Shown: positions 6,660 through 47,277 of the stretch, piece by piece
Layout of the letters: every line of letters starts with the position of its first letter
Position numbering within the stretch: position 1 is the first letter of the stretch
NCBI GenBank assembly: GCA_027919835.1
Contig: JANVFP010000026.1
Span: 682,001-746,000, forward strand
Source of the DNA: Lentinula raphanica
Taxonomy: Eukaryota; Basidiomycota; Agaricomycetes; Agaricales; Omphalotaceae
Direction: 5' to 3'
DNA: 64,000 nt
Made by a program: the position numbers and the translations under genes
The notes under the pieces: generated by a model
Told to the model about the DNA's origin: nothing
Databases searched by the model: none
Seen by the model: only the letters and a program-made list of their open reading frames with translations

Positions 6660-6731
6660 AGCAGCATGGCGCAGTGGTAGCGCGCGGGGCCCATAACCCC
6701 GAGGTCACTTGATCGAAACAAGTTGCTGCTA
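6660..6731 (+). tRNA. Initiator tRNA-Met (CAU)
   Basis: A 72-nt intronless cloverleaf. The acceptor stem AGCAGCA pairs perfectly with TGCTGCT at 6724-6730, the discriminator base is A, and the anticodon CAT sits in the loop CCCATAA. Initiator hallmarks are visible: A1:U72 at the end of the acceptor stem, consecutive G:C pairs in the anticodon stem (CGGGG with CCCCG), and a T-arm loop ATCGAAA with A in place of T54 and A60. It therefore delivers the first methionine to the ribosome rather than elongating. The internal A and B boxes overlap the D and T arms as usual. Nucleotides 26-39 are complementary to the primer-binding site of the copia element at 41.1-46.4 kb. Confidence 0.96.
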
Positions 6732-6747
6732 ATAGCACTGCGCAAGG

Positions 6748-10499: not shown

Positions 10500-10983
10500 A
10501 GCCTTTGCCTTTGCCTTGGATTTCTTTATTAGTGCAATTGCGATGCTTCATCTCTACGATTTTCACAAACTATACCATGATATACCTTCACTGCTTCGTC
10601 TTCAAGATACCTATCTAAACTTGTAGCATAGCTTGACTTTGAATCAATGATTTTCATCTCAAAGTTCTGTTCAGTTCGAACGTGTTTGCATCAAGCTTAT
10701 GGATTTTCTTGACATCCTCATTGTCAAGCTTGTGTTTCGACTCAGGTGCGTTCAAGAGTGTTGAGGACAATAATAATTGCTGACGGCTACAATAGATGCC
10801 GCTGATTAAGCAGCTATTTTCAATTCGCCTGATTGAATCCGTCGTTGCGGCCATCAAAATTTGATTGGAAATGGTTGACGGGCCGCGGTTGAATTTTATA
10901 ATTGTTAAGTTGTTTTCTTGTTCCTGTTAGTCCTGCAGGTCCTTTTTCGATAACCCTCATTCTTTTTTCATTCTTTTACCACC
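10500..10983. other. Intergenic between the tandem GT90 genes
   Basis: 3' flank of copy A and promoter of copy B. No other gene or repeat was noticed. Confidence 0.5.
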
Positions 10984-13508
10984 ATGAGTACTCGGCCTAT
11001 GCTCAGTCGTACTCCTAGTGACACACCATGGGTTTCTTCCAACCAGCATCGTTTCTCACAACGAAGATGGCGGCCACTGCTCATGTGGACGCTGCTTGCT
11101 TGCACTACTATCGCTATCTTTCAGGTCGGCTTGCGTGCTGGGTCACCTCCAACCATCTCTACAATTTCCGAGCCTTCTTCACCACATCCTTCCGCGCTCA
11201 CATACTCAACACATCCTATAACTCGCATGATGGACGAAGCCGAAGAACGATTTCGAGCCAAAGTCGAAAGACAGTCAAAGACTTTGCCTGAGGCCATAGA
11301 AGAATACAAGCGTCGCTACGGGATGCCCCCACCAAAAGGTTTTGACGGCTGGTGGGAATACACGAGGAAATACGATGTTGTGCTCGTGGACGAATACGAT
11401 ACTCTTATGCGCGACTTGGCACCGTTCTATGCTCTACGAGGCAAAAAAGAACATGGAGACTATTCAGATGATGACGAAGATCCTTTGCGCCCTGGCTCAG
11501 GCTTGGACAGGAATGGATGGGCATTGGGCGGAGGTCCTGAAATGCGGCGGCGTATAGCCGAGGTTGCTGGCGTTTCTTCCATTGATCTCGTTCGCGTCCG
11601 GAACGGTGTACCTTCCACCGTCTCTATAAACAAGGACGGGTTTGTTGACGACGAAGTGTCTGCACGTGCCAGAGGTCTAAAGAGTATGTTAGGAAAATGT
11701 GTTGCAGTTCTACCCGATATGGACTTCCCTGTCAACGCCAAGGCGGAGGGCAGAGTCATCGTTCCTTGGAACAGGTGGGAGGTGGTAGGCCAGGACGGTA
11801 CGACAAGCGATAAAATCGGGCTTGGGATGGGGAACAGAACATATCTTGAACTCGAGACCGATGATCAATCGAACTCTGCTCATCCTCTTTCTACTTTTCG
11901 TCCGGACTGGAGAGGAGAAGGAAATGTCTGGGATACATGGCGAAGAACGTGTCCTCCTAACTCTACTGCACGAAAATTCTACGCAAGTATCCGGAGTGCA
12001 ATGCTTGATAGTACCACATCGTCGAATAATCCTGCGTCTGGAGGAGATGAAGGCATGTTGTTTCGCATATTTCACATGAGTTTTCCTCATCCGCTGTTCC
12101 AGGCTCTATACCGTCATCGTTTGCATTCGCGCCCTCGACTTCCTTCAGCGACATCAATTTTTGCGACGAACCCCATCTACACTACACGCAGGGTCACTTT
12201 TTCAGTGACTGGCGTACCCTTGGAGAACTCTATCCCGTTTTGAGCCCTGCCAGGGCAAAAGGTTTTGGGGATATCAAAGTAAGGCTTCAATCACGTTGGG
12301 CCTTAATGTTCCTAGTTAACATATACCACGCAGATACCTTCTCATTACTACTACGGTTCTACCGATGCTTACACATATGGCTGGGACGAGGTGAATCTGG
12401 AATTGCAACCGACAGATCGTGGTGAAGTGGCATGGGGGGATGAGACCGATTTGGGAGCCAATGGTGGAGGTGGTGTAGATGACCGCGACATGAGTACGTA
12501 TGAATCTACTATCTGCTGTGGACCGATGCTGATCTTTAAGCTTTCCTCTAGTCATTGACCCATCTTACGACGGACACACCAACACCGCCAATCCACCCAA
12601 AAACAGAAAAACCGGCAAAGAAAGCAAACGGAACAAAATCTTTTGGCGCGGAGCTACGACTGGTGGCGGAAATTCTCCTCCAGGCTTCGCCGCTCTCTAC
12701 CAGCGTCATCGGGCAGTTCGAATGGCTGGATGGGATGTCGACAGCGACGTGGAGATCTGGATACCCAACACAATTTCTCTTCTGGCTAACTCCTCCTCAT
12801 CAACTTCCAAGTCAGCCAATGCCAACGACGTTCCCCTCACCGCCCACAAGATTCCTGCTGCAACCTTGAACAAAGCGTTGATGGACGTCGCGTTCGTTAA
12901 AGCATCCAATGCGGATCAATATCCTGGCGGTTTGGAGAAACTTATGGCGGAGCACAGATTCTCCGGTAGTGTTTACCTAGGTGTGTATCGGGTTCCACCG
13001 TGACTGTTGTATAACTCATCCTTCTTCTCAAGGTGGTCACTGGCAATACAAGTACCTCCTCGATCTCGACGGCATGTCGTACTCTGGTCGATTCATGTCC
13101 TTCCTCGCTTCTGACTCGGTACCTCTAAAAAGCACGGTCTACGAGGAATTCTTCTCCGAATGGATCGAACCCTGGCTGCATTTCATCCCTCTCTCTGCTT
13201 CATACGAAGAGATCTACAACATCTTTGGCTACTTCTCCGGTATACCCGCAGAAGTTGTCGAGGAGGTTTACGGTAACGCGACAGATCCTGCAACCGGTGC
13301 GCCCCTCTTCCCACCCGGCACCAAGATTCCTGCCATACCTGGTGCGCCGGACGGTGATGCACGCCTGAGACGCATTGCGCGTGCAGGGAAGCAATGGAAG
13401 AGAACGATTGGGCGGACGTTGGACTTGGAGTCTTATGTGTATCGCCTTGCGTTGGAATGGGCGAGATTGTGTGCGGACGATCGGGATGCGATGTCGATGA
13501 AAGTGTAG
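10984..13508 (+). CDS. GT90 (CAP10-like) glycosyltransferase, copy B
   Basis: Tandem paralogue of copy A with five exons: 10984-12052, 12103-12278, 12334-12493, 12552-12980 and 13033-13508, about 769 residues. The architecture is the same: a short N-terminal tail, a signal anchor (LLMWTLLACTTIAIFQVGL), a stem with EEYKRRYGMPPPKGFD, and a catalytic region with CDEPHLHYTQGHFFSDWRT, KIFWRGATTGGG and DLDGMSYSGRFMSFL. It probably transfers a pentose or hexose to glycans in the secretory pathway. Intron positions match copy A, but the first intron of copy B begins with GC (12053-12054, context AAG|GCATGT) and ends in CAG; using it is the only way to keep the frame. The copies differ most around the junction at about residue 350 and in the Ser-rich loop before exon 5. 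Exon 5 ends in MSMKV, as in copy A (MTMKV). Confidence 0.9.
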
Positions 13509-21252: not shown

Positions 21253-21448
21253 TAAGTTCTTCGTGGGGGTTTCGAGGGGACCTTGATAGTTGCACTGCAA
21301 GTGGGGGAATCGTCGATAGGAAATCGAGCCCTTTAAAATCAGTCGTGCAACTTGGGGAGGACCCCAGAAAACAGGATTTCTCCGGATGGCGCCTTTAGCC
21401 CTATACTGCCCTATGGCGACATGAATCATACAAATGCCTCAAATTTCC

Positions 21449-21900
21449 GGTTCATGGGCTATGTCCGTGGAGGCTTATGTCCCAATTCGGACATAAGCCA
21501 ATGCACATGACTTTTCCCATGACTAACCCATCCTAAGGTCGCACGGCCTGCATAGAGCAGTTTTCATTCACTTGAGGCTAGAAAATTAGAGCTTGAACAA
21601 ATTTTACTAGTTTCATCATCTTACTGTCTAATTTTGAGCTTCTACTATCAAATTTTGTCATGTCATGAAGAATAAGACTCGAAAAAATGGATTGAACACC
21701 AAGGGAAGAAAGCCCGAGGCCGAGTCAGCCGATTACTTGCAAAATCAATCTTATCTATCTTATCACTGACATCTTATCAGAAATCAGTAGATTGCCGGTC
21801 TTCGGCATGACAGCTCAGCGCGCTCAGGAAGAAACTCTCACGACATCTTGAAAATCATTGGCTGGGGCTTATGTCAAATGGGGCAGTTGCCCAAAAAGAG
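21449..21900 (+). repeat. Left inverted-repeat arm, outer part
   Basis: Reverse complement of about 28150-28600 with no difference I noticed over more than 400 bp. The arm continues after the gypsy insertion at 27856-27920. Confidence 0.85.
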
Positions 21901-22303
21901 TGTTGTAATAACATTTCGTAATATGCTGATCGACGCTCAAAAGGGAAGTTAGTCCCATGATCTGGCGGTACTTACCTTTTTAGGCGTCCAGTTGCCGTTC
22001 GTACTTTTCTCCTTCTCAAATGACCTGTAGTTTTACTCCCGTTTATTCTACGACCTTCTACATGACTTCACCTTGATTCCTCTTGACTCCAGATGATTCT
22101 TTGAACAATATCTTAGCGTATTATTCCGAGACTTTCAGGTCTCTTGACTCGTATTTCGATTCCTAGGCGCTTTCTTACGGTACCGATCGTATCTCTCACT
22201 TAGGTATAAAAGGACCGTAGATAGTCGAGAATAGATCAGAATTCTCTCCGCCCACTTGATAGCTCGACCGGCCTCAGCCCGAAATCTTTGGACGGATACT
22301 TCA
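21901..22303 (+). repeat. Gypsy 5' LTR
   Basis: 403 bp, TG...CA. It contains a TATA box (TATAAAA at 22205-22211), which likely drives the element's transcript. Confidence 0.95.
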
Positions 22304-22525
22304 CTTTGCAAAGTGAAGGGTCTACTTAGCCTACCTTCGATACTGGTATATCTTCGAGACTTTGAGAATCTCGACTGTACGTACTTTGACTTAGTCATCA
22401 TCAGTTAACGAGCTCAACAACGATTACCTCTTTTCAGAGAATCGTTCACCATCTAGTCGACACCCAAAAATCAACCAGCGTTCAGTCAAAAATTTTGCTA
22501 GGATTCCTTGCGCTTTTCTTCGAAT

Positions 22526-25500
22526 ATGTCAAATATCACCTTGGACCAGCTTCGCGACGCCCTCAGTCCCGAAGCGTTCAATGTGATTGGCCCAGTGTTC
22601 TCCAACATAGCAGAACGTCTTCAAGAAACCGAAAATCGTCTTGCTCAACTCCAAAGTGAGCAAACCACTACTAATCAGCTTGCTGCTTCATTTCGAGATG
22701 CCGTTTCTCAAATGACCCTTCCCACAGCTGCGCCTCCACCTCCGGTTGCTCAACCACAAGCCCAGGTTGCTCGCGCGCCTCTTCGTACAGAACTTCCCAT
22801 TTTCCGAGGTCGTCCTGATGATAATGTTAGTGCTTTCATCTCAATCGCTAAAGACTTACTGAGAGCCACTCACATCGATCAGGAGGACTGGGGAGTTATC
22901 GTAAGTGGATGCCTTCGCGACGCTGCTCAAACCTGGTACTTAGCCAAAAAGCAGGCCAACAACGATCAGCCTCTACCCTGGAACGAGTTGGAACAGGAAC
23001 TTCGTCGCCAATTTGACCACCCTGCTCGGACTGACGAGGTGCGAAACAGCTTGAATCGGTGTAACTACAAAGGTAATGTCTCCGAGTTCATCGCTCGCTT
23101 TCAAAAGCTTGAAATGCAACTCGCTCCCACAGACATGACCTTTGGAGATCGTAAGTTCAACTTCTTCCGGAGTCTCCCACCAGATATGTGTTTCCACATC
23201 TCTAACTCCAATCCTGCCTCTATGTCGGATGTCTATGAAGCAGCCCGTGTTTACGAACGTTATCGCCGTACCTCTGGTAACAACCATAACCACTCCCATG
23301 GTCGAACCTCTGATCCTCGTCTTCGTCGCCCCAACCAGCCTTCCAGTGGAGGAGTATCTAGTTCTTCGATGTATCCTTCTGTGAACGACGCCACCTCTGG
23401 TGCCGTTCCAATGGATCTTGATACCTTCTCCCACACCGCTCAAAATATCGACAAGACGAAGATGCGCTGCTATAACTGCAACAAGCTCGGACACTTTTCC
23501 AAGGATTGTCGTCAGCCCCGGAAGCGAAGACCCATGAGTGCAGGACTCTCTAAACGTCCGGCTCAACCTATGTTCCACATCGCGGACCCAGACCCTCTTC
23601 GCCCTGGACGAATGTACAACTCCACGCCGTATCCCCAGACTCACTTCAACTATAGCTTTCCACGTACCGACATCCAGAAGAGCACTCCCCAGTCTGAGGT
23701 CGACAGGTTCCTTGGCTCTGTCAAAGTCGAGCCAACCGAACCGTCCCTCAGTATGAATGCTTTCACCCTCGATATGCGCTCTACTCCTGAAACGAGTCTA
23801 CCTATCTATGTCGCGACTGTCTCTGGTCGTCCTTCTTGTCCTGGGAAATACATCGTGGTGAAGGAAGTTGACGTTATCGCAGATACTGGAGCTAGAGACA
23901 ACTTCATCCGAAGCGACGTTGTTCAGGCAATCAATGCAGAATACTTCTCTATCAATCCACCTCGGGACATTGCTGGTGCGGGCCGAACAGTCACTTACGG
24001 TTTCGCCAAATTCACTCTCAAGATTGGAGGTGTTGAAGAAGTGATCTCTGCTTACGTTCTTCCAAAGAACAGTGGATTCCGGTACGATCTTCTTCTCGGA
24101 CGAGACTTCCTTGCCCGGCACAACGTAGTCTTCAACTGGGACCGTAATACGCTTGAGATAGTCTCTCCTAAGACGAGAGCTCTCATCACCATCCAGGCTC
24201 GTCCCAACCCGCAGTCGCTACCTGTTCAGGAGGTGTACTGTGCTAATGTTGATGATGAGTATGTGTCCCTTTCTGAGAATGACGAAGTATACTCACCCGA
24301 CTTCAATCCTACCTCCTTCAGCAAAGGAACGAGCAACGATGAAGACTCCTCTGACGATGCTCCTTCGGAACTGGTCCTGGATAACGACAACCCTAAGGCT
24401 GAAGAACCTGAGAAGAAGCAAAAGATTAGTCAGAAGCTGAAGAACATGGCCGTCAAGTACTTTCCTAAGTTGTTTCGCAAGAAAGTAGGTTATCCTCCTC
24501 CTCGACGATGGGTACATAGGATTGATACTGGAAACGCACAGCCTGTCAAAATCCGTGGAAGGCCTCACTCCCCTCGCGAGAATCTGGAAGTAAAGAAGTT
24601 CGTAGACGAGGCTCTGGCCGATGGAGTCATCGAGCCCTCGAACTCGCCCTGGTCAGCTCCTATTATTCTGGTTCCTAAGAAGAACGGTGAGCTTCGTCCT
24701 TGTGTTGATCTCCGAGCTCTCAATAATCTAACTCGAAAAAATGCCTATCCTCTTCCTCGCATTGACGAATGCTATGTGAATCTACAAGGTGCCAACTGGT
24801 TCACTACGCTTGACCTCAAATCCGGTTACTGGCAAGTTCGTATCGCCGATGAGGACAAGGAGAAGACAGCTTTCACCTGCCGGTATGGACATTTTCAGTT
24901 TCGCGTTATGCCTTTTGGACTCACGAATGCCCCTGCGACCTTCCAAAATATGATGAATGATATCCTTTCTGAATATATCGACAAATTCGTTATGGTATAC
25001 CTGGACGATATTGTCATATACTCAAGCAATCTGGAGGAACACGGAACTCATGTTCGAAAGGTACTTGCAGCTCTCGATAAAGAAAATCTCGTCTTGAATC
25101 TTGACAAATGTTCGTGGGCACAGGAAGAACTCCTCTATCTTGGTCACTATGTTTCTGGAAAAGGTATTCAGGTCAACCCCGACAAAGTTCGCTCGATCGT
25201 CGAATGGCCCATGCCTACCAACATTACCGAACTTCGTGGATTCTTGAACATCGCTGGGTACTACCGACGCTTCATCCAGGATTTTGCAAAGATCGCTCTA
25301 CCTCTGACGAATCTTCTGGCTGGTGCTCCACGAAAGGGTTCTCCCATCGACTGGTCTCCCGAATGTTCCCATGCCTTTCAGACTTTGAAGAACGCCCTGG
25401 TTAATGCCAAAATGCTTATTCATCCTACCCCCTGGCACGTCTTTGTTGTCGACACGGATGCTTCGGGTTCCTGTCTTGGCGCGGTCCTTCAACAATCGAC

Positions 25501-27268
25501 CATGCCGTTCAAGAATCTGAACAAAGGGAGGGATGATAGTGAGTCTCCGGATCGATTTACGTTCAAAGAAAAAGACTTAAGGCCAATAGCTTATGAATCG
25601 CGCAAGATGACTCCAACGGAACAAAGATACTCTGCACAAGAACGCGAAATGTTGGCAATAGTTCATGCTTTGAAGAAGTGGCGTGGCTACATTGAAGGTT
25701 CTCCAATCGTGGTACGCACTGATCATGAATCTTTGAAGTATTTCCTAACGCAAAAACATCTTGGTCGCCGCCTTTCTCGCTTCAATGATGATATCGCTCA
25801 CTTTGACGTGAAGATCATCTACCGCCCTGGTTCTGCTCAAGTCGCTGCTGATGCTCTCTCTCGCCGACCTGGACACCCTGATATCCCTGACACCGAGTAC
25901 GAACCTCTTCACGCTACGGAACTTCTGCCTGAGGATCGAGTCTCAGTCTATTACACCCTAGAGGGATACCGAAGAGACCTACTGGCTGGAAAACATAACG
26001 GCGCCTTTGGCAAGTACATGGTAAGCAACAACCGGCTGTTCAAAGACATAAGCCCTGACGATTCGCCGGGATCCCAGATCGTGGTTGTTCCTACCTCTGC
26101 TGCTGAAGCTGCCGAACTCGTTCGTCGACTTCATATCGACCTTGGTCACCTAGGTATCAACGCTGTCGCAGATTGCTTGCGTACTCGAGCTTGGTTCCCC
26201 AATTCCACAGAAGTCATTGAGCGCACTGTACGTACTTGCGACGAGTGTCAGTTTTCCAAACGCGAAGCGAATCCCTTGCAGCCTATGTTCCCTCTTCCTC
26301 GAGTCAAAGCTGGTGACGTCTGGTCCTATGATTTTGTTGGTCCTCTGCCCAAGACAAAGAAGGGTAATCAGTACCTACTTACGTCGATGGATATGGGTAC
26401 TGACTACACCTTTGCAGAAACATTGGTCCAGCGTTCCAGCGATGCGGTTATCAAGCTTCTTCGTCGACAAATATCGTTGTTTGGAAAACCAAGGGCCGTG
26501 CTCACGGATAATGGTGAGGAGTTCATGTCGTATGCCTTTCAAAATATGCTCAAAAGACTTTCTATTGAACACCTCCATACTACGCCTTATCATCCCCAAA
26601 CAAATGGTCGACTCGAAAAATTCAACGATACTCTGGTTCAAATTTTAGCTCGCTACTGTGCTCCGGATCGTCAAGACGAATGGGATGAATACGTACCTGA
26701 TGCGCTGCTCGCTCACCATGCTCACAAGAACCCCAGCACTGGTGCCTCTCCAGCACGCATGATGTATGGATTTGAACCTCGTCTTCCCGCGGACACCATC
26801 TTCGACACTATGCGCATTCCACCTTCTGACGCCGAGATCACTGTCCTCCAAGAAAGACGTCTTGCACATATTCAAGATCTTGAGAGGTTCCGGGATGAGG
26901 CAAATGCAAAAGCCTTGGAACGCCTTGAGAACGAAGCTGCCAAACGCGAAGCTGGATACGAGGAACGCGGGATAGGGATTGGAGACATGGTGTTGAGGAA
27001 GAATGAACGTAAGTCCAAGATCCATCCTCGCTGGGATGGACCGTTCATTGTTCGCGACACTTCCGACAAGAACACTTACCAGTTGATGACCAGAAATGGA
27101 TACGTCCTTCGGCACCTCTACAACGGTTCCCGCCTTCGTCCCTATCACTCGCGCAACTCAAATGAAGTCCCTAACGCTTCGCTATGGTATGCTTCCTCTG
27201 ATCTTCAACGTCGGGATGCTCATGAACGTTTGAAAGCAGGAACGGGAAAATACCAGGTCACCAAATGA
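22526..27268 (+). CDS. Gypsy Gag-Pol polyprotein
   Basis: 1580 residues in one frame from the ATG at 22526 (MSNITLDQLRDAL); the frame is open a little further upstream but only from a TTG. In order: a Gag region with the retrotransposon-gag motif around DAAQTWYLAKKQ; a CCHC knuckle CYNCNKLGHFSKDC at about residue 315; a protease with DTGARDNF at about 453; a reverse transcriptase with YLDDIVIYS at about 825; RNase H with DTDASGSCLGAVLQQ at about 976 and TDHESLKYF; an integrase with the HHCC-type zinc site (HIDLGH ... CDECQF) at about 1201 and a DDE core including DNGEEF at about 1328; and a C-terminal part with DGPFIVRDTSDKNTYQL resembling the GPY/F module. I see no chromodomain. No frameshift or stop separates Gag from Pol. 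Confidence 0.96.
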   Translation: MSNITLDQLRDALSPEAFNVIGPVFSNIAERLQETENRLAQLQSEQTTTNQLAASFRDAVSQMTLPTAAPPPPVAQPQAQVARAPLRTELPIFRGRPDDNVSAFISIAKDLLRATHIDQEDWGVIVSGCLRDAAQTWYLAKKQANNDQPLPWNELEQELRRQFDHPARTDEVRNSLNRCNYKGNVSEFIARFQKLEMQLAPTDMTFGDRKFNFFRSLPPDMCFHISNSNPASMSDVYEAARVYERYRRTSGNNHNHSHGRTSDPRLRRPNQPSSGGVSSSSMYPSVNDATSGAVPMDLDTFSHTAQNIDKTKMRCYNCNKLGHFSKDCRQPRKRRPMSAGLSKRPAQPMFHIADPDPLRPGRMYNSTPYPQTHFNYSFPRTDIQKSTPQSEVDRFLGSVKVEPTEPSLSMNAFTLDMRSTPETSLPIYVATVSGRPSCPGKYIVVKEVDVIADTGARDNFIRSDVVQAINAEYFSINPPRDIAGAGRTVTYGFAKFTLKIGGVEEVISAYVLPKNSGFRYDLLLGRDFLARHNVVFNWDRNTLEIVSPKTRALITIQARPNPQSLPVQEVYCANVDDEYVSLSENDEVYSPDFNPTSFSKGTSNDEDSSDDAPSELVLDNDNPKAEEPEKKQKISQKLKNMAVKYFPKLFRKKVGYPPPRRWVHRIDTGNAQPVKIRGRPHSPRENLEVKKFVDEALADGVIEPSNSPWSAPIILVPKKNGELRPCVDLRALNNLTRKNAYPLPRIDECYVNLQGANWFTTLDLKSGYWQVRIADEDKEKTAFTCRYGHFQFRVMPFGLTNAPATFQNMMNDILSEYIDKFVMVYLDDIVIYSSNLEEHGTHVRKVLAALDKENLVLNLDKCSWAQEELLYLGHYVSGKGIQVNPDKVRSIVEWPMPTNITELRGFLNIAGYYRRFIQDFAKIALPLTNLLAGAPRKGSPIDWSPECSHAFQTLKNALVNAKMLIHPTPWHVFVVDTDASGSCLGAVLQQSTMPFKNLNKGRDDSESPDRFTFKEKDLRPIAYESRKMTPTEQRYSAQEREMLAIVHALKKWRGYIEGSPIVVRTDHESLKYFLTQKHLGRRLSRFNDDIAHFDVKIIYRPGSAQVAADALSRRPGHPDIPDTEYEPLHATELLPEDRVSVYYTLEGYRRDLLAGKHNGAFGKYMVSNNRLFKDISPDDSPGSQIVVVPTSAAEAAELVRRLHIDLGHLGINAVADCLRTRAWFPNSTEVIERTVRTCDECQFSKREANPLQPMFPLPRVKAGDVWSYDFVGPLPKTKKGNQYLLTSMDMGTDYTFAETLVQRSSDAVIKLLRRQISLFGKPRAVLTDNGEEFMSYAFQNMLKRLSIEHLHTTPYHPQTNGRLEKFNDTLVQILARYCAPDRQDEWDEYVPDALLAHHAHKNPSTGASPARMMYGFEPRLPADTIFDTMRIPPSDAEITVLQERRLAHIQDLERFRDEANAKALERLENEAAKREAGYEERGIGIGDMVLRKNERKSKIHPRWDGPFIVRDTSDKNTYQLMTRNGYVLRHLYNGSRLRPYHSRNSNEVPNASLWYASSDLQRRDAHERLKAGTGKYQVTK

Positions 27269-27452
27269 GCGTTGACCCTGGTCCCTCACGAAAATTTCTG
27301 TGACTCTATTCTTCATACTGTAACATTAGTTTTCTATCCCTTCTGGCTGTACTAACACTCACCTTTTCTGATTGTTCTTTCTCTTCGTTACCGATTCTCT
27401 TCGACTCGGTTGTAACTGCTTTTGCAGGAGCAAAAGAGTAACAAGGGGGTTG

Positions 27453-27855
27453 TGTTGTAATAACATTTCGTAATATGCTGATCGACGCTCAAAAGGGAAG
27501 TTAGTCCCATGATCTGGCGGTACTTACCTTTTTAGGCGTCCAGTTGCCGTTCGTACTTTTCTCCTTCTCAAATGACCTGTAGTTTTACTCCCGTTTATTC
27601 TACGACCTTCTACATGACTTCACCTTGATTCCTCTTGACTCCAGATGATTCTTTGAACAATATCTTAGCGTATTATTCCGAGACTTTCAGGTCTCTTGAC
27701 TCGTATTTCGATTCCTAGGCGCTTTCTTACGGTACCGATCGTATCTCTCACTTAGGTATAAAAGGACCGTAGATAGTCGAGAATAGATCAGAATTCTCTC
27801 CGCCCACTTGATAGCTCGACCGGCCTCAGCCCGAAATCTTTGGACGGATACTTCA
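27453..27855 (+). repeat. Gypsy 3' LTR
   Basis: 403 bp, no difference from the 5' LTR noticed on reading; TATA box at 27757-27763. Confidence 0.95.
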
Positions 27856-27920
27856 AGAGATAAGCCTCACGCGACGTTGATATACCTAAAACGGTCTTGA
27901 TTTCGGATAAGCCAAACCTC
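27856..27920 (+). repeat. Left inverted-repeat arm, inner part
   Basis: Continues the arm interrupted by the retrotransposon and matches the reverse complement of about 28085-28150 with a single visible difference (CTCACGCG against CTCGCGCG). The first four bases, AGAG, are the gypsy target duplication. Confidence 0.8.
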
Positions 27921-28079
27921 AAAATTTTGAGAATTTGAGTGGATTCTACTTCAAGAAAAGAGATCCAGAAGGTGAGACTTGATTACAATAATCCCCTCCC
28001 TTCTTTCTTTTTTTTTCTCTTTTTCTCACTCGAAAAAACTTGAAAAAAATGAATTCTCCACAGACATAAACCATAAGCC
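27921..28079 (+). repeat. Central 159-bp unit, copy 1
   Basis: Starts AAAATTTTGAGAATTTGAG, contains a long pyrimidine tract and ends ACATAAACCATAAGCC. It sits between the two arms and has the same sequence as copy 2. Confidence 0.85.
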
Positions 28080-28600
28080 AAATTTTGAGGTTTGGCTTAT
28101 CCGAAATCAAGACCGTTTTAGGTATATCAACGTCGCGCGAGGCTTATCTCTTTTTGGGCAACTGCCCCATTTGACATAAGCCCCAGCCAATGATTTTCAA
28201 GATGTCGTGAGAGTTTCTTCCTGAGCGCGCTGAGCTGTCATGCCGAAGACCGGCAATCTACTGATTTCTGATAAGATGTCAGTGATAAGATAGATAAGAT
28301 TGATTTTGCAAGTAATCGGCTGACTCGGCCTCGGGCTTTCTTCCCTTGGTGTTCAATCCATTTTTTCGAGTCTTATTCTTCATGACATGACAAAATTTGA
28401 TAGTAGAAGCTCAAAATTAGACAGTAAGATGATGAAACTAGTAAAATTTGTTCAAGCTCTAATTTTCTAGCCTCAAGTGAATGAAAACTGCTCTATGCAG
28501 GCCGTGCGACCTTAGGATGGGTTAGTCATGGGAAAAGTCATGTGCATTGGCTTATGTCCGAATTGGGACATAAGCCTCCACGGACATAGCCCATGAACCC
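28080..28600 (-). repeat. Right inverted-repeat arm
   Basis: Uninterrupted copy of the arm in reverse orientation. It shows the sequence AAAAAGAGATAAGCC that existed before the gypsy element landed in the other arm. Confidence 0.85.
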
Positions 28601-28759
28601 AAAATTTTGAGAATTTGAGTGGATTCTACTTCAAGAAAAGAGATCCAGAAGGTGAGACTTGATTACAATAATCCCCTCCCTTCTTTCTTTTTTTTTCTCT
28701 TTTTCTCACTCGAAAAAACTTGAAAAAAATGAATTCTCCACAGACATAAACCATAAGCC
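28601..28759 (+). repeat. Central 159-bp unit, copy 2 (direct repeat)
   Basis: Direct repeat of 27921-28079 placed just outside the right arm. Its end is the right terminus of the whole element. Confidence 0.85.
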
Positions 28760-36452: not shown

Positions 36453-36577
36453 AGCAGTATTCAGAGTATACTTTGAGCACACTGTCACCGGTCCAGCCGG
36501 GTACAAGGTTGGGTCAAAGTCGTAAATTCCCTCGCGAGTGGGCAGAGCGAGGAGATTTGAGAGAGCATGTCAAGCGC

Positions 36578-37111
36578 CAGACTCCTTCCCATCCGCTCTT
36601 GCGGGTTAAAAAATGAGAATATTACTATATATGGCATATCTGTATCTTATCGTAATCTATATCTTATCAATATCACGTGCATTTACATTTTTTAACCACG
36701 CAAGAGCGACTGGCATAACTTGTATGGGCGCTTGTTGGTCTTGTTTGGTTTGGGCGCTTAAACACATGTAGCGCCTCCCGATTTTCCTCATTTACCTTTG
36801 TCCTACAAATTAATTTAGAGTTTTTTTGATCACAAAGCAGGCAGTGGAGGCCATATTACATGAAGTACAGGGTATTGGTGCAAGTTGAGTACAAAAATTT
36901 TGGCGCTAATCAAATTCCAATACCAAATTTAGCGCCCAAACCAAACAAGACCAACAAGCGCCCATACAAGTTATGCCAGTCGCTCTTGCGTGGTTAAGAA
37001 ATGTAAATGCACGTGATATTGATAAGATATAGATTACAATAAGATACAGATATGCCATATATAGTAATATTCTCATTTTTTAACCCGCAAGAGCGGATGG
37101 GAAGGAGTCTG
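36578..37111. mobile_element. Mutator-like MITE with 9-bp target duplication
   Basis: Long inverted repeats of about 190 bp (36578-36768 and 36922-37111, starting CAGACTCCTTCCCATCCGC on each side) enclose a 150-bp centre. GTCAAGCGC flanks it exactly on both sides (36569-36577 and 37112-37120), a perfect 9-bp duplication. The long arms, 9-bp duplication and absence of a transposase fit a non-autonomous Mutator-type (MULE) element. Arms are nearly identical, with small differences such as TTTTTTAACC against TTCTTAACC. Confidence 0.88.
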
Positions 37112-37245
37112 GTCAAGCGCTCAATGACAACATTTCGAAACATAGCTGCTTACCTAAGCGCTCAGCGCTTCCAAAGTATTGAGACTCAGCACTGTGCCGA
37201 CTGAAGCCGACCATTGTAAATTGCTCGGGACTAGTGTTGCCGCGA

Positions 37246-40432: not shown

Positions 40433-41125
40433 CTGTCATTCATTATTCAACAAATGACTATCTCTGAAGTTGTTGCAGGAGTCATCAGTGGTCATGATGG
40501 AGCAGCACATCATCTGTCTTTCTGAATCCTGGCTCTGTCACCCTTCGAAGGTTGCATAACGAGGCCTCCTGTACACGTGTTAACAAGGGCGTTCAAATAA
40601 TATGATGTACATTGGATGTTTTATCACGGTTACAAGCATTTGGGATGGTTGATCATTGAGGAGTCAAAACAGCACGGAACCTGATCTGGCCACTCTGCAT
40701 CTTGCTGTATGCTTCGTTTACTTGCTCCAAGGAGAAACTGGGAGGGCGCGTCAACCCAGTGAGTGTGAAAATCAGGCATGTAAGAACATCTAACGCACGT
40801 TTCGACCATTGTTTTAATATTATGCTTCTGAGCAAAGGCAACCGCATCCTCACTATCCTTGGCATGACCGGAAGGCCACCCCTTAATCGACGAGCGCTTG
40901 CCAATAAGAGCGATCGTACTGAATTTGAGGTCAGTGACTGAAGAAGAGAACGTTCAGATTTTGGATGGTCTGCAATTATTCCTTCAGTATTCACTCACTA
41001 GCGACGGTAAGCATGGTTCCTCCAATCTTCAATCCACCGAGCAGATTCGCGATAGCCTCACCCTGAGGAGCAGTAGCGAGTATGACTTTGGCTCCACCGA
41101 GTTTCATGAGCTCTTCCACCTGGTT

Positions 41126-41450
41126 TGTTGGTATTCAACGCTCGGGCTCGTTAGCCGGACGACACGGACCGTAACTGTACAGTTATTATGTAATTACGTT
41201 CATTACTTGTTTCGTGTATTTTTCCTTTTTCCTCAGTCTTCGTCTTCTACTTCGACGACTGAGGTATGTTCTATTTTATCCACATTCGTTTATATTCTTA
41301 CTTACTCTGTTGTAGCTTCGCATCTCCGCTACGCTACAGGTATGTAATAATAATATGAGTCTTCGTCTTCTACTTCGACGACTGAGCTTCGCATCTCCGC
41401 TACGCTACAGTTTCGTGCCGCGGTTCTTCCATTCGGATTCTGCGCCAACA
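41126..41450 (+). repeat. Copia 5' LTR, with an intron-like segment and a spliced duplicate
   Basis: Inside the LTR, segment A (41236-41263) and segment B (41316-41339) are separated by 52 nt with GTATGT at the start, TTGTAG at the end and a CTTAC branch-like site. After a 19-nt spacer (41340-41358) the LTR carries A and B again, joined exactly without the 52 nt (41359-41410). The 3' LTR has the same arrangement. Confidence 0.93.
41264..41315 (+). other. Candidate intron inside the copia LTR
   Basis: 52 nt, GTATGT...TTGTAG, pyrimidine-rich near the end, with a CTTAC branch-like site about 12 nt before the acceptor. Size and signals match introns of host genes in this window. The neighbouring copy of its flanks lacks exactly these bases. 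Confidence 0.75.
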
Positions 41451-41464
41451 GGTTATGGGCCCCG
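41451..41464 (+). other. Copia primer-binding site for half initiator tRNA-Met
   Basis: GGTTATGGGCCCCG lies directly after the 5' LTR and is the exact complement of nucleotides 26-39 of the tRNA at 6660-6731. Drosophila copia is known to be primed by the first 39 nt of initiator tRNA-Met, and yeast Ty5 also uses an initiator tRNA half; the fit here points to the same mechanism. Confidence 0.9.
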
Positions 41465-41586
41465 GTGCACCTTAATTTTCCTCGTCGTCGTTACTCTGCT
41501 TTTATTCAAGACTCACTCCGGTTCAATCAACCCCGCTTCTCTTCACTTGACAAAATCTATCCTCATCCTCCATATCTCCTGCTGTC

Positions 41587-44500
41587 ATGCCTTCTGGTCC
41601 TTCTTCCTCCACTACTCCTCCTACCACTGATTCCCCTGCTCCTGCTTCCAGTGATCCAGGTACTGGTGAAACTGAGCTGTATGCTGACTGGGGTCTTATC
41701 TCTGGTGCTTTCCAAGTCTACCCCACTCATCCTGATCGTGTTCTCACTGGATCTGAGAACTACTCTGCATGGAGTACGTCCTTTCTCAAGGCCGCTCGAT
41801 TCTCTGAGTGCGAGGGTATCCTTACGGGTAGGATCGTCATGCCTACTTCGGATAACGCCAAGATTCGTACCTTCAACCGGGCGGATAGCTTCCTCTGCAC
41901 CATTCTTGGGCAGTGTATCCACCAGTCGTTGATGGTGAAGGTCGATGGTAAGACTGCTCGTCAGGCTTGGCTTACGTTGGAGGAGGAGTACTCCCAGAAG
42001 GACTTAGGTTCCGTGAGGATCTGGTTCGAGCAGATGACCGAGAAACTCCAGAAGGGTGGAGATCTCGACTCGCATATCCGGCGCTATCAGGAGGCTCTTC
42101 AGCACCTCAACACTTATGGTCTGAACCTACCTGAGAAGTTCGCCGCTGCTTTCTTTGTCGTCAGCCTTTATGGCAATCCTCACGATCCCCTTTCCTATCA
42201 CAACTTCATCTCGAACTTCAAGTTCAGTGAAGCCACCACCCTTATCGCCACCATCGCCGATCTCCGTTCCTTCTATCGTAGCAGTGGTTTGGGTCAAGAT
42301 GCTATCTCCTCGATGCCTTCTATCGAGTCTGCTCTTGCCACCCTCGAGACTGCTCATCGTGCTAAGGGGGAGCGTTACTGTCGTAACCCTCTCTGCCCAA
42401 CGCCGAAGGGACACCTTATCGAGTCGTGCTGGGCGCCGGGTGGAGGTGATTATAGGCCAGAGGGTATGGGGAAATCGAAGAAGAAGAAGCCGAAGGGTAA
42501 AAAGGGCAAGGAGAAGGCCCATGTTGCGGAAGAAGGGGGGAGTACTTCTCAGCCGAATATCTCTTCTACTCACTTTGTAGCCGATTCTATGTCTCACCAA
42601 TACGATTCCGAATTCTCTGCTTACTCGTCGGTGTCTGAATCATGCTCAAAGCCATCCCCCTCTGTGTCTGATGCTGATCGAGCGTATCCAGCTGGTACTG
42701 CTCAAGCTAGACCGCCGCCTGTCGTTATTGATACCGGTTCCACCACTCATATTCACTCAGTCAAATCCGACTTCTCACATCTCCGCTCCGTTTCTCAGCA
42801 TGTCACTGGCTTTGGGAATGGATCTCGGAAGATCGCTGGTCGAGGTATCGCAACCTTTATTGCTCGTTTGCCAAAACATCGTCGTTGCCGTCTTCTCATG
42901 AAGAACACTGCCTATGTCCCCAACTCTTCACCCTCTCTCATCTCTGTTCCTGCCCTCGACGAAGCTAAGTGCTATTCCGTCTTTGGTGCTGGGAAGTGTG
43001 TCGTCTTTTCTCAAGACGATGAGGGAAAGTTTATCGAGGAGCTCATGGACAAGACAGGTATTGTCTTCACGGCTACGAAGGATGATTCGCGCCTCTACTC
43101 CCTTGACCAGGATACTCCGGATACTGTACACCATGCCACGACGGATTCCGTTCCTCCTTCCAATCTTAAACTCCACCTCCTTCACTGTTCGCTAGGTCAC
43201 CTAGGCTATGAGGGATGTCGAGAGCTTTATCGGAAGGGTCAACTGGGCGACGAGTGGAAGTTCACGGATGCTGAGCTTAAGGCTGAGCCTCCCATATGTG
43301 ATGCCTGTGCGCGAGGCAAGCATACTCGGTCCTCATTTCCCCCCTCTACTTCTCGAGCCAAAAATCCCTTGGATCTCGTTCACTCTGACTTGTGGGGACC
43401 GTCTCCTGTGCAAACTAGGCACGGTAAGCGCTATCTCATGACTTTCCTCGATGATCACTCTCGGAAATCATGGGTCTACTTCCTTCGGACCAAGAGCGAG
43501 GCTTTCGCTGCGTTCAAAGAGTGGTTGGCACTTGTAGAACGTGAAACTGGTCGTAAGCTGGTTGAGCTTCATACTGATAATGGGGGAGAATACTTCTCTG
43601 GCGAGTGGTCCACCTTCCTCAAGGCTCGTGGCATTCGTCACAGTAGCTCCGCTCCTCATACTCCTCAGCAGAATGCTCGTGCGGAACGTCTTAACCGTAC
43701 CATCTTTGACCGGGTTCGTACGATTCTCATTGACTCTGGCCTTCCTCTTTCCTTTTGGGGTGAGGCTGTCACCTACATCAATGATCTTCGCAACGCTTCC
43801 TTCACTCGCTCTCTTCCTCGGGGATTGACTCCGAATGTGGCCTATGGCCATGGTCCAAAGTTACGTGATCTTCACCCCTTCGGGTGTAAAGCCTGGGCAT
43901 ATAACACTTCTCCTGATCACAAGTTTGATGATCGTGGTCTGCCTGGATTCTATCTGGGGAAGGATGATGTTCGTGATGCTTTTCGGGTGTATGTTCCGGA
44001 GAAGCGAGGTATCTTTCACTCTGCTTCTGTCAAGTTTGACAATTCCGCTTATGGGGGAGCACTCTTTCGTGAGGCTTCATTGTCAAAGGGGGAGTCGTAT
44101 GACTATTCGCAGATTTTTCCTGGTGATGTCTCAATTTCTCCTCCTGCTCGACCTCCACCTGCTCCTGCTCCTCCTCCACAATCACCCATCATTGCGCCCT
44201 CTCCTCCTCCTTCACCACCACCTGCTCCTCCACCTCGTGCTCCACGTCCTAACCCTAGACTTCCGTCTAATGCGACTCCACGTCGTACTCGTACTGGGGT
44301 CGCTGCTCAGCGTCATGCTATCATGCAGGATGCTATAGGCTTCGATGGTGATGGGGGAGCACTTACAGATCCTGAAGATGATGAAGTCGAGCCTGGTGAG
44401 CCCGAACATGCTTTTCATCTTCGTCATGGAGATACTCCCCTCTCCTACAAGCAAGCTATGGACTGCCCTGACACTCCAGAGTGGCAGGAAGCCATGCTAT

Positions 44501-46032
44501 ACGAGCACACCAAACTCCTCGAAACAGGCACGTATGAACTTGTTCCTCTGCCTCCTGGCTGTAAGGCCGTCGGTACCCGCTGGGTTTGGGCCGTTAAGAC
44601 TCATGCCAAGTACGGAACCATTAACGGGTTTCGAGCTCGTGTTGTTGCTCAGGGTTTCTCTCAACGACCTGGGATTGACTTCTCAGATACTTGTGCTCCT
44701 ACAGCTCGTATCGAGTCCACTCGAGGTATTGCCGCTCTTGCTGCTAGTCTCGATTGGGAGATAGATGTAGTCGATGTGGTCTCAGCATTCCTCAACTCCG
44801 AGATGCCTGAGGACCAACCGGTCTACGTCAAACAACCTGAAGGACTCGAAATCGAAGGAAAAGAAGATCATGTCTGGCTACTGCGGAAAGCCTTGTATGG
44901 CCTGAAGCAAGCTGGTTTCCTTTGGTACGAGAAACTTAAAAATATTCTTCTTTCTCTTGGTTTCACTGTCTGTGACCGTGATCCCTGTGTCTTCGTACGC
45001 CGCTCCTCATCTGGCACTGTCATCGTCACCACCCATGTTGATGATCTTGCTATCTTTGCCAGTACTCGCAAAGTCATGGACTCGTTCAAGGCCGATCTCA
45101 AGGAACATGTCGATATCACAGATAAGGGTCCTGTCTCTCAGCTCCTTGGTATGACCATTACTTGTGATCGTGCTAAACGAACCATCTCTTTCTCTCAGCA
45201 AGGCTACACCGAGACTCTACTCCGAGAGTTTCACATGGAAGACTGTCGATCTGTCTCCACTCCCATGGAGAACGCTCCTCTTCGTCAGTCGGACTGCCCT
45301 CCTCCTGCTTCAGCGGAACAGGAAGCTATGCAGCACATTCCTTATCCTCACGCTGTTGGTCGTCTCATGCACCTAGCTGTCATGACCCGTCCTGATATCA
45401 GTCGTGCTGTGCAACGTGTTTCCCAGTTCATGAAGAATCCTGGTCATTCTCACTGGATAGCTGTTCAGCGGATCATTCGCTATCTCAAAGGCACGTCTGA
45501 CTATGAGCTAGTACTCGGTGGTCTCCCCAAAGGCAATCCTTCCTTTGATCCTTTCTTTGCTCATTCCGATGCCAACTTTGCTGATAATCCTGATGAGCAT
45601 GGCCACTCGATATCTGGTGGTGCTCTGTTCTTCAACACCGGTTGCTTTCACTGGTATGCTCGGAAGCAAACTCAAGTTGCTATTGGTACTCCAGGTGCTG
45701 AGTACTATGCTGGTAGTATCTGTGGTGCAGATATTGTCTGGTTCCGCGAACTCCTTGATGAGCTAGGTTTTGGTCGTTGTTCTCCTACCCTCATGCATGT
45801 CGACTCAAACTCAGCCATGGCAAACCTGAACTCCAACAAGGTGACTCATGGTACGAAACATATCAAGATTCGTTACCATTGGATCCGCCAGGCTATCGTA
45901 TGCAAGGACCTAGCCACTGTCCGAGTTGATTCGAAACAGAACTGCGCCGACATCTTCACCAAGCCACTCACACCAGAGCAACACCGGATCGGCGTTCAAG
46001 GTTTGGGTTTACAACGAGCCGCATCTCGTTGA
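41587..46032 (+). CDS. Copia Gag-Pol polyprotein
   Basis: 1481 residues from the first ATG (MPSGPSSSTTPPTTDSPAPA). In order: Gag of the UBN2/DUF4219 type (GSENYSAWSTSFLKAARF); a modified CCHC knuckle CRNPLCPTPKGHLIESC at about residue 264; protease with VVIDTGSTTHI at about 380; the integrase zinc region (HCSLGHLG ... CDACARGKH) from about 532 and core with HSDLWGP, HTDNGGEYF at about 661 and PHTPQQNARAERLNRT; a Pro-rich linker at about 855-900; reverse transcriptase from about 965 (GTRWVWAVKTHA) with VDDLAIF at about 1150; and RNase H with SDANFAD at about 1327, ending in KQNCADIFTKPL. The integrase-before-reverse-transcriptase order defines Ty1/copia. There are no frameshifts or stops, so it could be functional. 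Confidence 0.97.
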   Translation: MPSGPSSSTTPPTTDSPAPASSDPGTGETELYADWGLISGAFQVYPTHPDRVLTGSENYSAWSTSFLKAARFSECEGILTGRIVMPTSDNAKIRTFNRADSFLCTILGQCIHQSLMVKVDGKTARQAWLTLEEEYSQKDLGSVRIWFEQMTEKLQKGGDLDSHIRRYQEALQHLNTYGLNLPEKFAAAFFVVSLYGNPHDPLSYHNFISNFKFSEATTLIATIADLRSFYRSSGLGQDAISSMPSIESALATLETAHRAKGERYCRNPLCPTPKGHLIESCWAPGGGDYRPEGMGKSKKKKPKGKKGKEKAHVAEEGGSTSQPNISSTHFVADSMSHQYDSEFSAYSSVSESCSKPSPSVSDADRAYPAGTAQARPPPVVIDTGSTTHIHSVKSDFSHLRSVSQHVTGFGNGSRKIAGRGIATFIARLPKHRRCRLLMKNTAYVPNSSPSLISVPALDEAKCYSVFGAGKCVVFSQDDEGKFIEELMDKTGIVFTATKDDSRLYSLDQDTPDTVHHATTDSVPPSNLKLHLLHCSLGHLGYEGCRELYRKGQLGDEWKFTDAELKAEPPICDACARGKHTRSSFPPSTSRAKNPLDLVHSDLWGPSPVQTRHGKRYLMTFLDDHSRKSWVYFLRTKSEAFAAFKEWLALVERETGRKLVELHTDNGGEYFSGEWSTFLKARGIRHSSSAPHTPQQNARAERLNRTIFDRVRTILIDSGLPLSFWGEAVTYINDLRNASFTRSLPRGLTPNVAYGHGPKLRDLHPFGCKAWAYNTSPDHKFDDRGLPGFYLGKDDVRDAFRVYVPEKRGIFHSASVKFDNSAYGGALFREASLSKGESYDYSQIFPGDVSISPPARPPPAPAPPPQSPIIAPSPPPSPPPAPPPRAPRPNPRLPSNATPRRTRTGVAAQRHAIMQDAIGFDGDGGALTDPEDDEVEPGEPEHAFHLRHGDTPLSYKQAMDCPDTPEWQEAMLYEHTKLLETGTYELVPLPPGCKAVGTRWVWAVKTHAKYGTINGFRARVVAQGFSQRPGIDFSDTCAPTARIESTRGIAALAASLDWEIDVVDVVSAFLNSEMPEDQPVYVKQPEGLEIEGKEDHVWLLRKALYGLKQAGFLWYEKLKNILLSLGFTVCDRDPCVFVRRSSSGTVIVTTHVDDLAIFASTRKVMDSFKADLKEHVDITDKGPVSQLLGMTITCDRAKRTISFSQQGYTETLLREFHMEDCRSVSTPMENAPLRQSDCPPPASAEQEAMQHIPYPHAVGRLMHLAVMTRPDISRAVQRVSQFMKNPGHSHWIAVQRIIRYLKGTSDYELVLGGLPKGNPSFDPFFAHSDANFADNPDEHGHSISGGALFFNTGCFHWYARKQTQVAIGTPGAEYYAGSICGADIVWFRELLDELGFGRCSPTLMHVDSNSAMANLNSNKVTHGTKHIKIRYHWIRQAIVCKDLATVRVDSKQNCADIFTKPLTPEQHRIGVQGLGLQRAASR

Positions 46033-46039
46033 GGGGGAG

Positions 46040-46364
46040 TGTTGGTATTCAACGCTCGGGCTCGTTAGCCGGACGACACGGACCGTAACTGTACAGTTAT
46101 TATGTAATTACGTTCATTACTTGTTTCGTGTATTTTTCCTTTTTCCTCAGTCTTCGTCTTCTACTTCGACGACTGAGGTATGTTCTATTTTATCCACATT
46201 CGTTTATATTCTTACTTACTCTGTTGTAGCTTCGCATCTCCGCTACGCTACAGGTATGTAATAATAATATGAGTCTTCGTCTTCTACTTCGACGACTGAG
46301 CTTCGCATCTCCGCTACGCTACAGTTTCGTGCCGCGGTTCTTCCATTCGGATTCTGCGCCAACA
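46040..46364 (+). repeat. Copia 3' LTR
   Basis: 325 bp, no differences from the 5' LTR noticed, including the unspliced and spliced A-B segments. Confidence 0.95.
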
Positions 46365-47277
46365 TGGTTCACTTGCGATCCATCGAGGTAATAATCCGCG
46401 CCGAGTTTAGTTGCCAGGTCTTTCTTCGAAGAAGACTGGGAAAGTGCGACGACTTTGTATCCCATCTGTTTAGCATATTGGATCCCTAGGTGTCCCAAAC
46501 CTGCAGTCAATTCAAGATCAGTTTAATCAAATCATTCGACTAGGATGGGAGTGAACCGCTTACCGCCAAGACCGTGAATGGCGACGAGATCTCCCTTTTT
46601 GAGGTCGTGAACGTTGCGCAAAGAGTTGAAAGTGGTGACACCGGCGCATAGAAGGGGAGCAGCCTCGGCAGGATTGAGTTCTTTCGGAACACGAACAACA
46701 GCTTCTGTGCGAAGGGTGACATATTCAGCGTACCCGCCATCTCGAGAGATGCTACCATCGTCGTATAAATATACCAATTGAAACGGAATTGGTAGACTGA
46801 TAGATATACGAACCCATTTATAGCCTCAGACGAACAGGTAATGAAGTCATTCTCCTTGCACGAGCCACACTGGTGGCAATGGCCTCCATGCCATCCAGAC
46901 CCGACGCGGTCTCCAATCTTCCATTTGGTTTCGCCAGTGGGTACCTCGACAACGTCACCGATGATTTCGTGCCCGGCGACTCGAGGGAGGGCAGTCATTC
47001 CGTATTTCACCATGCCGTCGCTGGAGTTCGTTCATGGTAGCTGATCGTTGATATGAGATGAGTACTAATTACCTAGCACAGATGCCACATGCAAGGACTT
47101 TGACGAGGATTGTACCTTCCTTGGGCGCCTGGTAAAACCACAGGGAATTGTGCTTATCAGTAACAGTGCTTCACTGACCACTACATCGGTCCTCACCTCA
47201 AGAGGCTTTTCGATGAGTTCAAAGTCACTGCCTGCAGAATTGATAACGGCGGCTTTGTATGTTTTGGGAAGAGACAT

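What the first reader, a model, noticed from the sequence alone, without database searches (positions are those of the whole stretch)
41236..41410. Copia LTR carries an intron and, beside it, its own spliced copy
Seen directly: segments A (28 nt) and B (24 nt) occur once separated by a 52-nt GTATGT...TTGTAG segment and once fused exactly, 19 nt apart, in both LTRs. An exact loss of a canonical intron is hard to explain without splicing followed by reverse transcription. I infer that a spliced element RNA was copied and joined in tandem to an unspliced one, for example by template switching during strand transfer, and was then fixed in the LTR. Because LTRs are rewritten in each cycle, the element now propagates both forms. 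The intron might regulate packaging, export or expression, or help the RNA evade host silencing.
Basis: partly seen in the sequence, partly recalled or inferred. Interest (0 to 1): 0.87.

Follow-up and report, generated by a model that had tools for sequence, protein, structure and literature searches.

The report
Retrotransposon repeat stores its spliced copy
In a fungal genome, many families of copy-and-paste (Copia) elements carry small introns inside their terminal repeats next to a ready-spliced copy of the same piece, which probably lets a spliced RNA be copied back into DNA without losing the introns.

Summary
Both LTRs of a young, intact Copia element (41126-46364) read A - 52-nt GT..AG intron - B - spacer - A fused to B. 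It is not a one-off: of the 21 best reverse-transcriptase hits in the genome, 19 show the same plan (12 with the intron); one LTR pair lacks it and one LTR was not captured. The copied unit starts at a pyrimidine-A step, 31-37 bp below a TATA-like box in 9 of 17 LTRs, so it looks like the RNA 5' end. Unit 1 is always followed by GTA and unit 2 always ends in YAG, so spacer plus unit 2 may be a second intron. Within most elements the two units are identical while differing between elements, which implies rewriting. One subfamily has lost exactly the intron. Best reading: the 5' RNA end is spliced to A-B-U5, and the stored A-B near the RNA 3' end is the landing site for spliced strong-stop cDNA, so LTR introns survive. 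A U3-A hairpin may keep the cDNA off the first A. The splicing origin is well supported; the replication role is inferred; no RNA data were available.

The parts
41121..41125 (+). target site duplication TGGTT (second copy 46365-46369)
   Evidence: sequence
41126..41450 (+). 5' LTR, TGTTGG..CCAACA, 325 bp, identical to the 3' LTR
   Evidence: 300 nt; aligned rows
41231..41264 (+). predicted hairpin CCTCAGTC..GACTGAGG joining the last 4 nt of U3, A1 and the first base of the intron
   Evidence: 3 of 100 arm shuffles reach it in this element
41235..41263 (+). A1, first exon; its first A is the inferred transcription start
   Evidence: start inferred from the YA step and from TATA spacing in other groups
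41264..41315 (+). intron 1, 52 nt, GTATGT..TTGTAG, CTTAC motifs 11 and 15 nt before the end
41316..41339 (+). B1, second exon, ends CAG before GTATGT
41340..41357 (+). spacer s, GTATGTAATAATAATATG, begins as a 5' splice site
41340..41410 (+). possible intron 2 (s + A2 + B2), 71 nt, GT..CAG; no yUnAy branch motif in range in this element
41358..41386 (+). A2, copy of A1
41387..41410 (+). B2, copy of B1 fused to A2
41411..41450 (+). U5
41451..41463 (+). primer binding site GGTTATGGGCCCC, exact complement of GGGGCCCATAACC in the tRNA-Met(CAT) gene at 6659-6732
41587..46032 (+). intact Gag-Pol ORF, 1481 aa, Copia domain order (gag, integrase, RVT_2)
46040..46364 (+). 3' LTR with the same arrangement (A1 46149-46177, intron 46178-46229, B1 46230-46253, A2-B2 46272-46324)

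Best explanation
The LTR carries introns in its R region and stores a ready-spliced copy of the RNA 5' end. Transcription starts at A1 (inferred). In the 5' LTR, splicing removes intron 1 and probably also s+A2+B2, leaving A-B-U5 at the RNA 5' end (intron 1 well supported by sequence, intron 2 inferred). The 3' LTR part of the RNA keeps A1-intron-B1-s-A2B2 (required by the DNA pattern). Minus-strand strong-stop cDNA made on the spliced 5' end matches A2-B2 and lands there (inferred). The new LTR is therefore U3-A1-intron-B1-s from the parent 3' LTR plus A-B-U5 from the parent spliced 5' end. The introns survive and A2B2 is rewritten from A1B1. A hairpin between the end of U3 and A1, which the 3' LTR part of the RNA can form but a 5' end starting at A1 cannot, would hide A1 from the cDNA and so favour A2 (inferred).
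For: Same plan in 19 of the 21 best RT hits. Intron 1 present in 12 of these 19: 50-58 nt, GT..YAG, yUnAy motif in range in 12 of 12 (no shuffled control for intron 1). Natural exact loss: L053 (C1) has unit 1 fused where L057 (C16) has a 55-nt intron; a third C1 LTR lacks 55 nt by coordinates, and the second C16 LTR is collinear with the intron. Fused copy downstream in 15 of 15 LTR cases. Unit 1 followed by GTA and unit 2 ending YAG in 19 of 19; s+unit 2 is 50-71 nt. Unit starts at A after a pyrimidine in 17 of 17 rows; TATA-like box at -31 to -37 in 9 of 17. Rewriting: unit 1 = unit 2 in 23 of 29 LTRs, while L049 and L054 units differ in 11 aligned columns from each other and in 0 within each. 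C41 has B1 different from B2 at one site identically in both LTRs, as expected if B1 comes from the parent 3' LTR and B2 from the parent 5' LTR. U3 adds -8.8 to -26.8 kcal/mol to folding of A1, the spacer adds 0.0 to -10.3 to A2, and the first is larger in 19 of 19.
Against: No RNA data: start site, splicing and poly(A) site are unseen. Intron 2 has a yUnAy motif in 13 of 19, no more than in shuffles (73%), and none in this element. In the older F1 copies concerted change is not shown: C22 unit 2 is as far from its own unit 1 (6) as from the window's (6), C30 unit 2 is 8 from its own and 7 from the window's. The arm-shuffle control is weak in five LTRs (3-13 of 100 as stable: win, L040, L041, L042, L046), and other stretches of the same LTRs fold as stably (rank 5 to 61 among 141-317 overlapping stretches). 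Donor pairing is higher with U3 in only 7 of 17 rows, one of them (L053) without a donor there. A TATA-like box at the expected distance is missing in 8 of 17, this element included. L045 has its A2 junction 4 nt further upstream. L044 has an LTR pair without the plan. Only 21 of 94 RT matches, plus the decayed C22 copy, were read.
Confidence: 0.62

Rival explanations
1. End-to-end rebuilding: the RNA 3' end lies at the end of s and the strong-stop cDNA of the spliced RNA is joined to it without homology, so A2B2 is made afresh each cycle and is not a landing site.
For: The unit begins at the inferred cap site and s ends there; homology stops sharply.
Against: s and its junction are inherited with few changes within groups F1, F2 and F6, which suggests that the junction is copied, not remade. 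In F5 the spacer length does vary (6-14 nt).
Confidence: 0.15
2. One accident, then passive inheritance: a template switch between spliced and unspliced RNA made the copy once in an ancestor, and it has no role.
For: Explains the exact intron loss in the fused copy; in the older F1 copies the two units have drifted apart.
Against: In groups F2, F5 and F6 unit 1 and unit 2 change together between elements; passive copies would drift apart.
Confidence: 0.1
3. The fused A-B is ancestral and the intron was gained later in the first copy.
For: Direction cannot be read from one element alone; group F6 and L047 have no intron 1.
Against: It would need gains at the same place in several groups; in the RT tree L053 sits among intron-bearing relatives, which fits loss; B1 followed by GT and the cap-site start of the unit stay unexplained.
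Confidence: 0.06
4. DNA-level tandem duplication and gene conversion within LTRs, without splicing.
For: Direct repeats a short distance apart can convert each other (recalled, no call).
Against: GT..YAG boundaries in 12 of 12 elements with the intron, and the fused copy downstream in 15 of 15 LTR cases.
Confidence: 0.04

Closest known systems
Foamy virus (spumavirus) LTR, PMC3694450
   Same: A splice donor lies inside R, so both LTRs carry it; the 3' LTR RNA has extra U3 nucleotides that change the fold at the donor, and U1 binding at the donor suppresses poly(A) use in the 5' LTR (abstract and sections 11-12 read).
   Different: The parts read mention no complete intron in the LTR and no stored spliced copy; that element is a retrovirus, this one a fungal Copia element.
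Drosophila copia and other half-tRNA-primed Copia elements (recalled, no call)
   Same: Copia domain order and a primer site matching the anticodon arm of a tRNA-Met.
   Different: No LTR intron or spliced copy that I know of.
Intron-bearing plant LTR elements EVADE and Ogre, PMC12786077 (passages)
   Same: LTR retrotransposons with functional introns.
   Different: Their introns serve subgenomic RNA production; EVADE splicing removes the protease domain, so it is internal (Ogre's position recalled). Here the introns are in the LTR.
Penelope-like elements, PMC3846280 (passages)
   Same: Retroelements that can pass introns on; direct terminal repeats with a putative TATA box and Inr.
   Different: Different reverse transcriptase and endonuclease; that paper discusses antisense or unspliced templates, and the passages mention no stored spliced copy.

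Membership tests
Ty1/Copia LTR retrotransposon | gag, integrase, then RVT_2 reverse transcriptase in that order | tested here: met
   Retrotran_gag_2 106-216, rve 593-693, RVT_2 982-1228
Ty1/Copia LTR retrotransposon | paired TG..CA LTRs, target site duplication, primer site, polypurine tract | tested here: met
   TGTTGG..CCAACA, TGGTT, GGTTATGGGCCCC, GAGGGGGAG before the 3' LTR
Spliceosomal intron (intron 1) | GT..AG ends, branch motif, short fungal length, exact loss in a relative | tested here: met
   (exact loss seen in one subfamily, F5; branch motif without shuffled control)
Spliceosomal intron (intron 1) | removed from RNA | not testable with these tools
   no RNA data held
Spliceosomal intron (intron 2 = s+A2+B2) | GT..YAG ends and short fungal length | tested here: met
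   19 of 19, 50-71 nt
Spliceosomal intron (intron 2 = s+A2+B2) | branch motif above background | tested here: not met
   13 of 19 against 73% in shuffles
Foamy-virus-like LTR switch (works like) | U3 nucleotides change the fold at the R splice donor in the 3' LTR only | tested here: inconclusive
   strong U3-A1 hairpin in most LTRs; donor pairing not consistently raised
Foamy-virus-like LTR switch (works like) | U1 binding at the donor suppresses the 5' LTR poly(A) site | not testable with these tools
   needs experiments
Penelope-like element | Penelope-type RT and GIY-YIG endonuclease | tested here: not met
   one search shows RVT_2 and rve instead

The most novel reading that the evidence does not exclude
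In these fungal Copia elements the terminal redundancy needed for first-strand transfer is made by splicing. The 5' RNA end acquires R only after LTR introns are removed, while a stored pre-spliced R sits at the 3' end and is rewritten every cycle. With the U3 hairpin this would be a built-in 5'/3' LTR discriminator and a general way for a retroelement to keep introns in its LTR.
Probability: 0.55. Interest if true: 0.92.

Novelty: new variant of a known kind. Interest (0 to 1): 0.85.

Why it matters
Introns should be erased from anything copied through spliced RNA; this arrangement shows how an LTR could keep one. It offers a readable record of splicing and strand transfer in DNA alone, and it bears on an old question, how a retroelement with two identical LTRs treats the 5' and the 3' copy differently. 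The prediction is sharp (A2B2 of a new copy comes from A1B1 of the parent's 5' LTR) and can be tested with RNA data or fresh insertions.

Tried and rejected
Automatic alignment of LTR loci in mixed orientation was of no use and was redone in one orientation. A scan of viral contigs with an RT alignment confirmed no relative. A first unbiased scan printed a long list dominated by tandem repeats, cut in the output, and was restricted to GT..AG gaps. Donor masking by the hairpin was tested and is not general; masking of A1 is kept as the weaker claim. A branch motif for intron 2 was tested and not supported. I considered a spliced-leader-like reading because A is 22 nt in 15 of 19 elements; cis-splicing to B explains the data without it. 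The Ty3/Gypsy element in the window was a single negative control: its 404-nt terminal repeat has only one repeated 10-mer and no such plan. Searches for prior reports of LTR introns with a spliced copy. I saw no such report in the listings, of which only the top rows were shown for (10 of 307; 12 of 456; 12 of 27); the library is open-access only. Passages of PMC5542766, PMC5014426 and PMC10817607 and the abstract of PMC10886601 did not describe it either.

Full report
Check of the observation. Both LTRs of the element at 41126-46364 hold A (41235-41263), a 52-nt GTATGT..TTGTAG segment, B (41316-41339), an 18-nt spacer that itself begins GTATGT, and then A fused to B (41358-41410), followed by U5. 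The element looks young: one intact 1481-aa ORF, identical LTRs, and a TGGTT target duplication. It is Ty1/Copia by domain order, with a primer site complementary to the anticodon arm of a tRNA-Met(CAT) gene that lies in the window; that this tRNA is the initiator is my reading. The host looks like a basidiomycete: the best hit of the pol fragment is a Moniliophthora perniciosa protein at 43%; the species is not known.

It is a pattern, not an accident. An RT piece found 94 matches in the 49-Mb genome, fragments included. I read the LTRs of the 21 best (L057 and L058 as 501-base stretches only). Nineteen have the plan [unit 1]-GTA..spacer-[unit 2]-U5: window, C41, L040-L043, L045-L057. Twelve of them carry an intron inside unit 1 that is missing from unit 2. 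L044 (C24) has an LTR pair without the plan, and in L058 (C33) no complete LTR was captured. Two further stretches, a decayed copy on C22 and one on C30 whose intron holds an insertion of about 218 bp, also have the plan. I sort the units by eye into seven groups, F1-F7 (F1 window, C41, C22, C30; F2 L040-L042; F3 L043, L045; F4 L046; F5 L049, L051, L053, L054, L057; F6 L048, L050, L052, L055, L056; F7 L047). RT identity to the window element is 98% in C41, 65-66% in F2 and 39-46% in the others. The tree puts intron-bearing elements on several deep branches, with some long branches of unsure place. An unbiased scan of 252,034 bases found 16 exact GT..AG cases, 15 of them in these LTRs, always with the fused copy downstream; the reversed sequences gave none, other end dinucleotides gave up to 11 cases per pair, not inspected. 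The one Ty3/Gypsy element in the window does not have the plan.

Why splicing. Intron 1 is 50-58 nt in 12 of 12, with GTATGT, GTAAGT or GTGAGT at the start, YAG at the end and a yUnAy motif in range in 12 of 12 (no shuffled control was run for intron 1). In group F5 the element on C16 has a 55-nt intron, and its sister type on C1 has unit 1 already fused. Position-only searches show three LTRs on C1 that lack 55 nt, while the two LTRs on C16 and two on C17 are collinear with the intron-bearing query. That is a natural exact loss, as expected from reverse transcription of spliced RNA.

Where the unit begins. In all 17 rows the unit starts at an A preceded by a pyrimidine; in L046, L056 and L047 the match runs one base further upstream, so the start is ambiguous by one there. 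In 9 of 17 rows a TATA-like box lies 31-37 bp upstream. In win, C41, L050, L052, L055 and L056 none was found, and in L047 and L048 it lies 48-59 bp upstream. L045, not in that table, has its A2 junction 4 nt further upstream. The unit is thus best read as the RNA 5' end. A is 22 nt in 15 of 19 elements (23 in L051 and L054, 29 in win and C41), a regularity I cannot explain.

The second intron. In 19 of 19 elements unit 1 is followed by GTA and unit 2 ends in YAG, and spacer plus unit 2 measures 50-71 nt. Removing it would leave unit 1 joined to U5, the same arrangement as unit 2 joined to U5. Branch motifs do not support it beyond background (13 of 19 against 73% in shuffles), so this step is inferred from ends, length and the rewriting pattern.

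Rewriting. In 23 of 29 LTRs unit 1 equals unit 2. Outside that count: L052 has identical units in its 3' LTR and a deletion in its 5' LTR, L047 has one difference in each LTR, L045 and L051 have identical units. Between elements of one group the units differ, for example in 11 aligned columns between L049 and L054, yet in 0 within each. In C41 B1 and B2 differ at one site, identically in both LTRs; in L046 one site behaves likewise, with one more difference private to each LTR. This is what one expects if U3-A1-intron-B1-s of a new LTR comes from the parent's 3' LTR and A2-B2-U5 from the parent's spliced 5' end. Against this, the older F1 copies do not show it: C22 unit 2 is 6 from its own unit 1 and 6 from the window's, C30 unit 2 is 8 from its own and 7 from the window's, although both copies of B share a 3-nt shorter form in C22 and C30. 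I take this as drift after insertion in decayed copies.

Model. The spliced RNA starts A-B-U5. The 3' end keeps the unspliced LTR up to some point in or after A2B2. The strong-stop cDNA lands on A2B2, so the LTR is restored with its introns. Shown: the DNA pattern, the intron marks, the exact loss, the identity of units within most elements. Inferred: start site, splicing at the 5' end, poly(A) position, landing on A2.

Hairpin. The last nucleotides of U3 pair with A1, and in most LTRs the stem ends at or just past the donor (folded at 28 C). Adding 25 nt of U3 makes A1 more stable by 8.8-26.8 kcal/mol, whereas the spacer before A2 adds 0.0-10.3; the first is larger in 19 of 19. With shuffled arms, none of 100 reached the observed value in 9 of 19 and at most one in 14 of 19; the five weaker cases include the window element (3 of 100). 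Other stretches of the same LTRs fold as stably (rank 5 to 61 among 141-317 overlapping stretches). Donor pairing is raised in only 7 of 17, one of them without a donor at that place. I propose that the hairpin hides A1 in the 3' LTR; foamy viruses use U3 nucleotides to change the fold at an R-region donor in the 3' LTR (PMC3694450, abstract and sections 11-12).

Novelty. Introns in LTR elements are known, and a donor in R is known from foamy viruses. I found no report of complete LTR introns kept beside a stored spliced copy (searches; open-access library, top listings only). I rate it a new variant of a known kind.

Noticed in passing
L041 (C18 element), LTR at C18:1073835-1074112: An 11-nt insertion in A1 of one LTR makes a long palindrome around the inferred start site, as if by fold-back synthesis.
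   Followed up: partly
L006/L007, C30:385179-385714: The intron of this F1 LTR holds an insertion of about 218 bp; splice signals on both sides are kept.
   Followed up: partly
window 21431-28617: A Ty3/Gypsy element (404-nt repeats at 21900-22303 and 27452-27855) is flanked by 470-nt inverted arms, 99% complementary.
   Followed up: no
window 36577-37112: Inverted repeat with 185-nt arms, 98% complementary, 166 nt apart.
   Followed up: no
window 9139-13337: Three stretches recur about 3 kb apart in the same order at 73-81% identity, as in a tandem duplication.
   Followed up: no
L040-L057: The first exon A is 22 nt in 15 of 19 elements although its sequence differs between groups; reason unknown.
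   Followed up: partly
L045 (C28): The spacer-A2 junction includes CCTC as before A1, 4 nt upstream of the usual start.
   Followed up: partly
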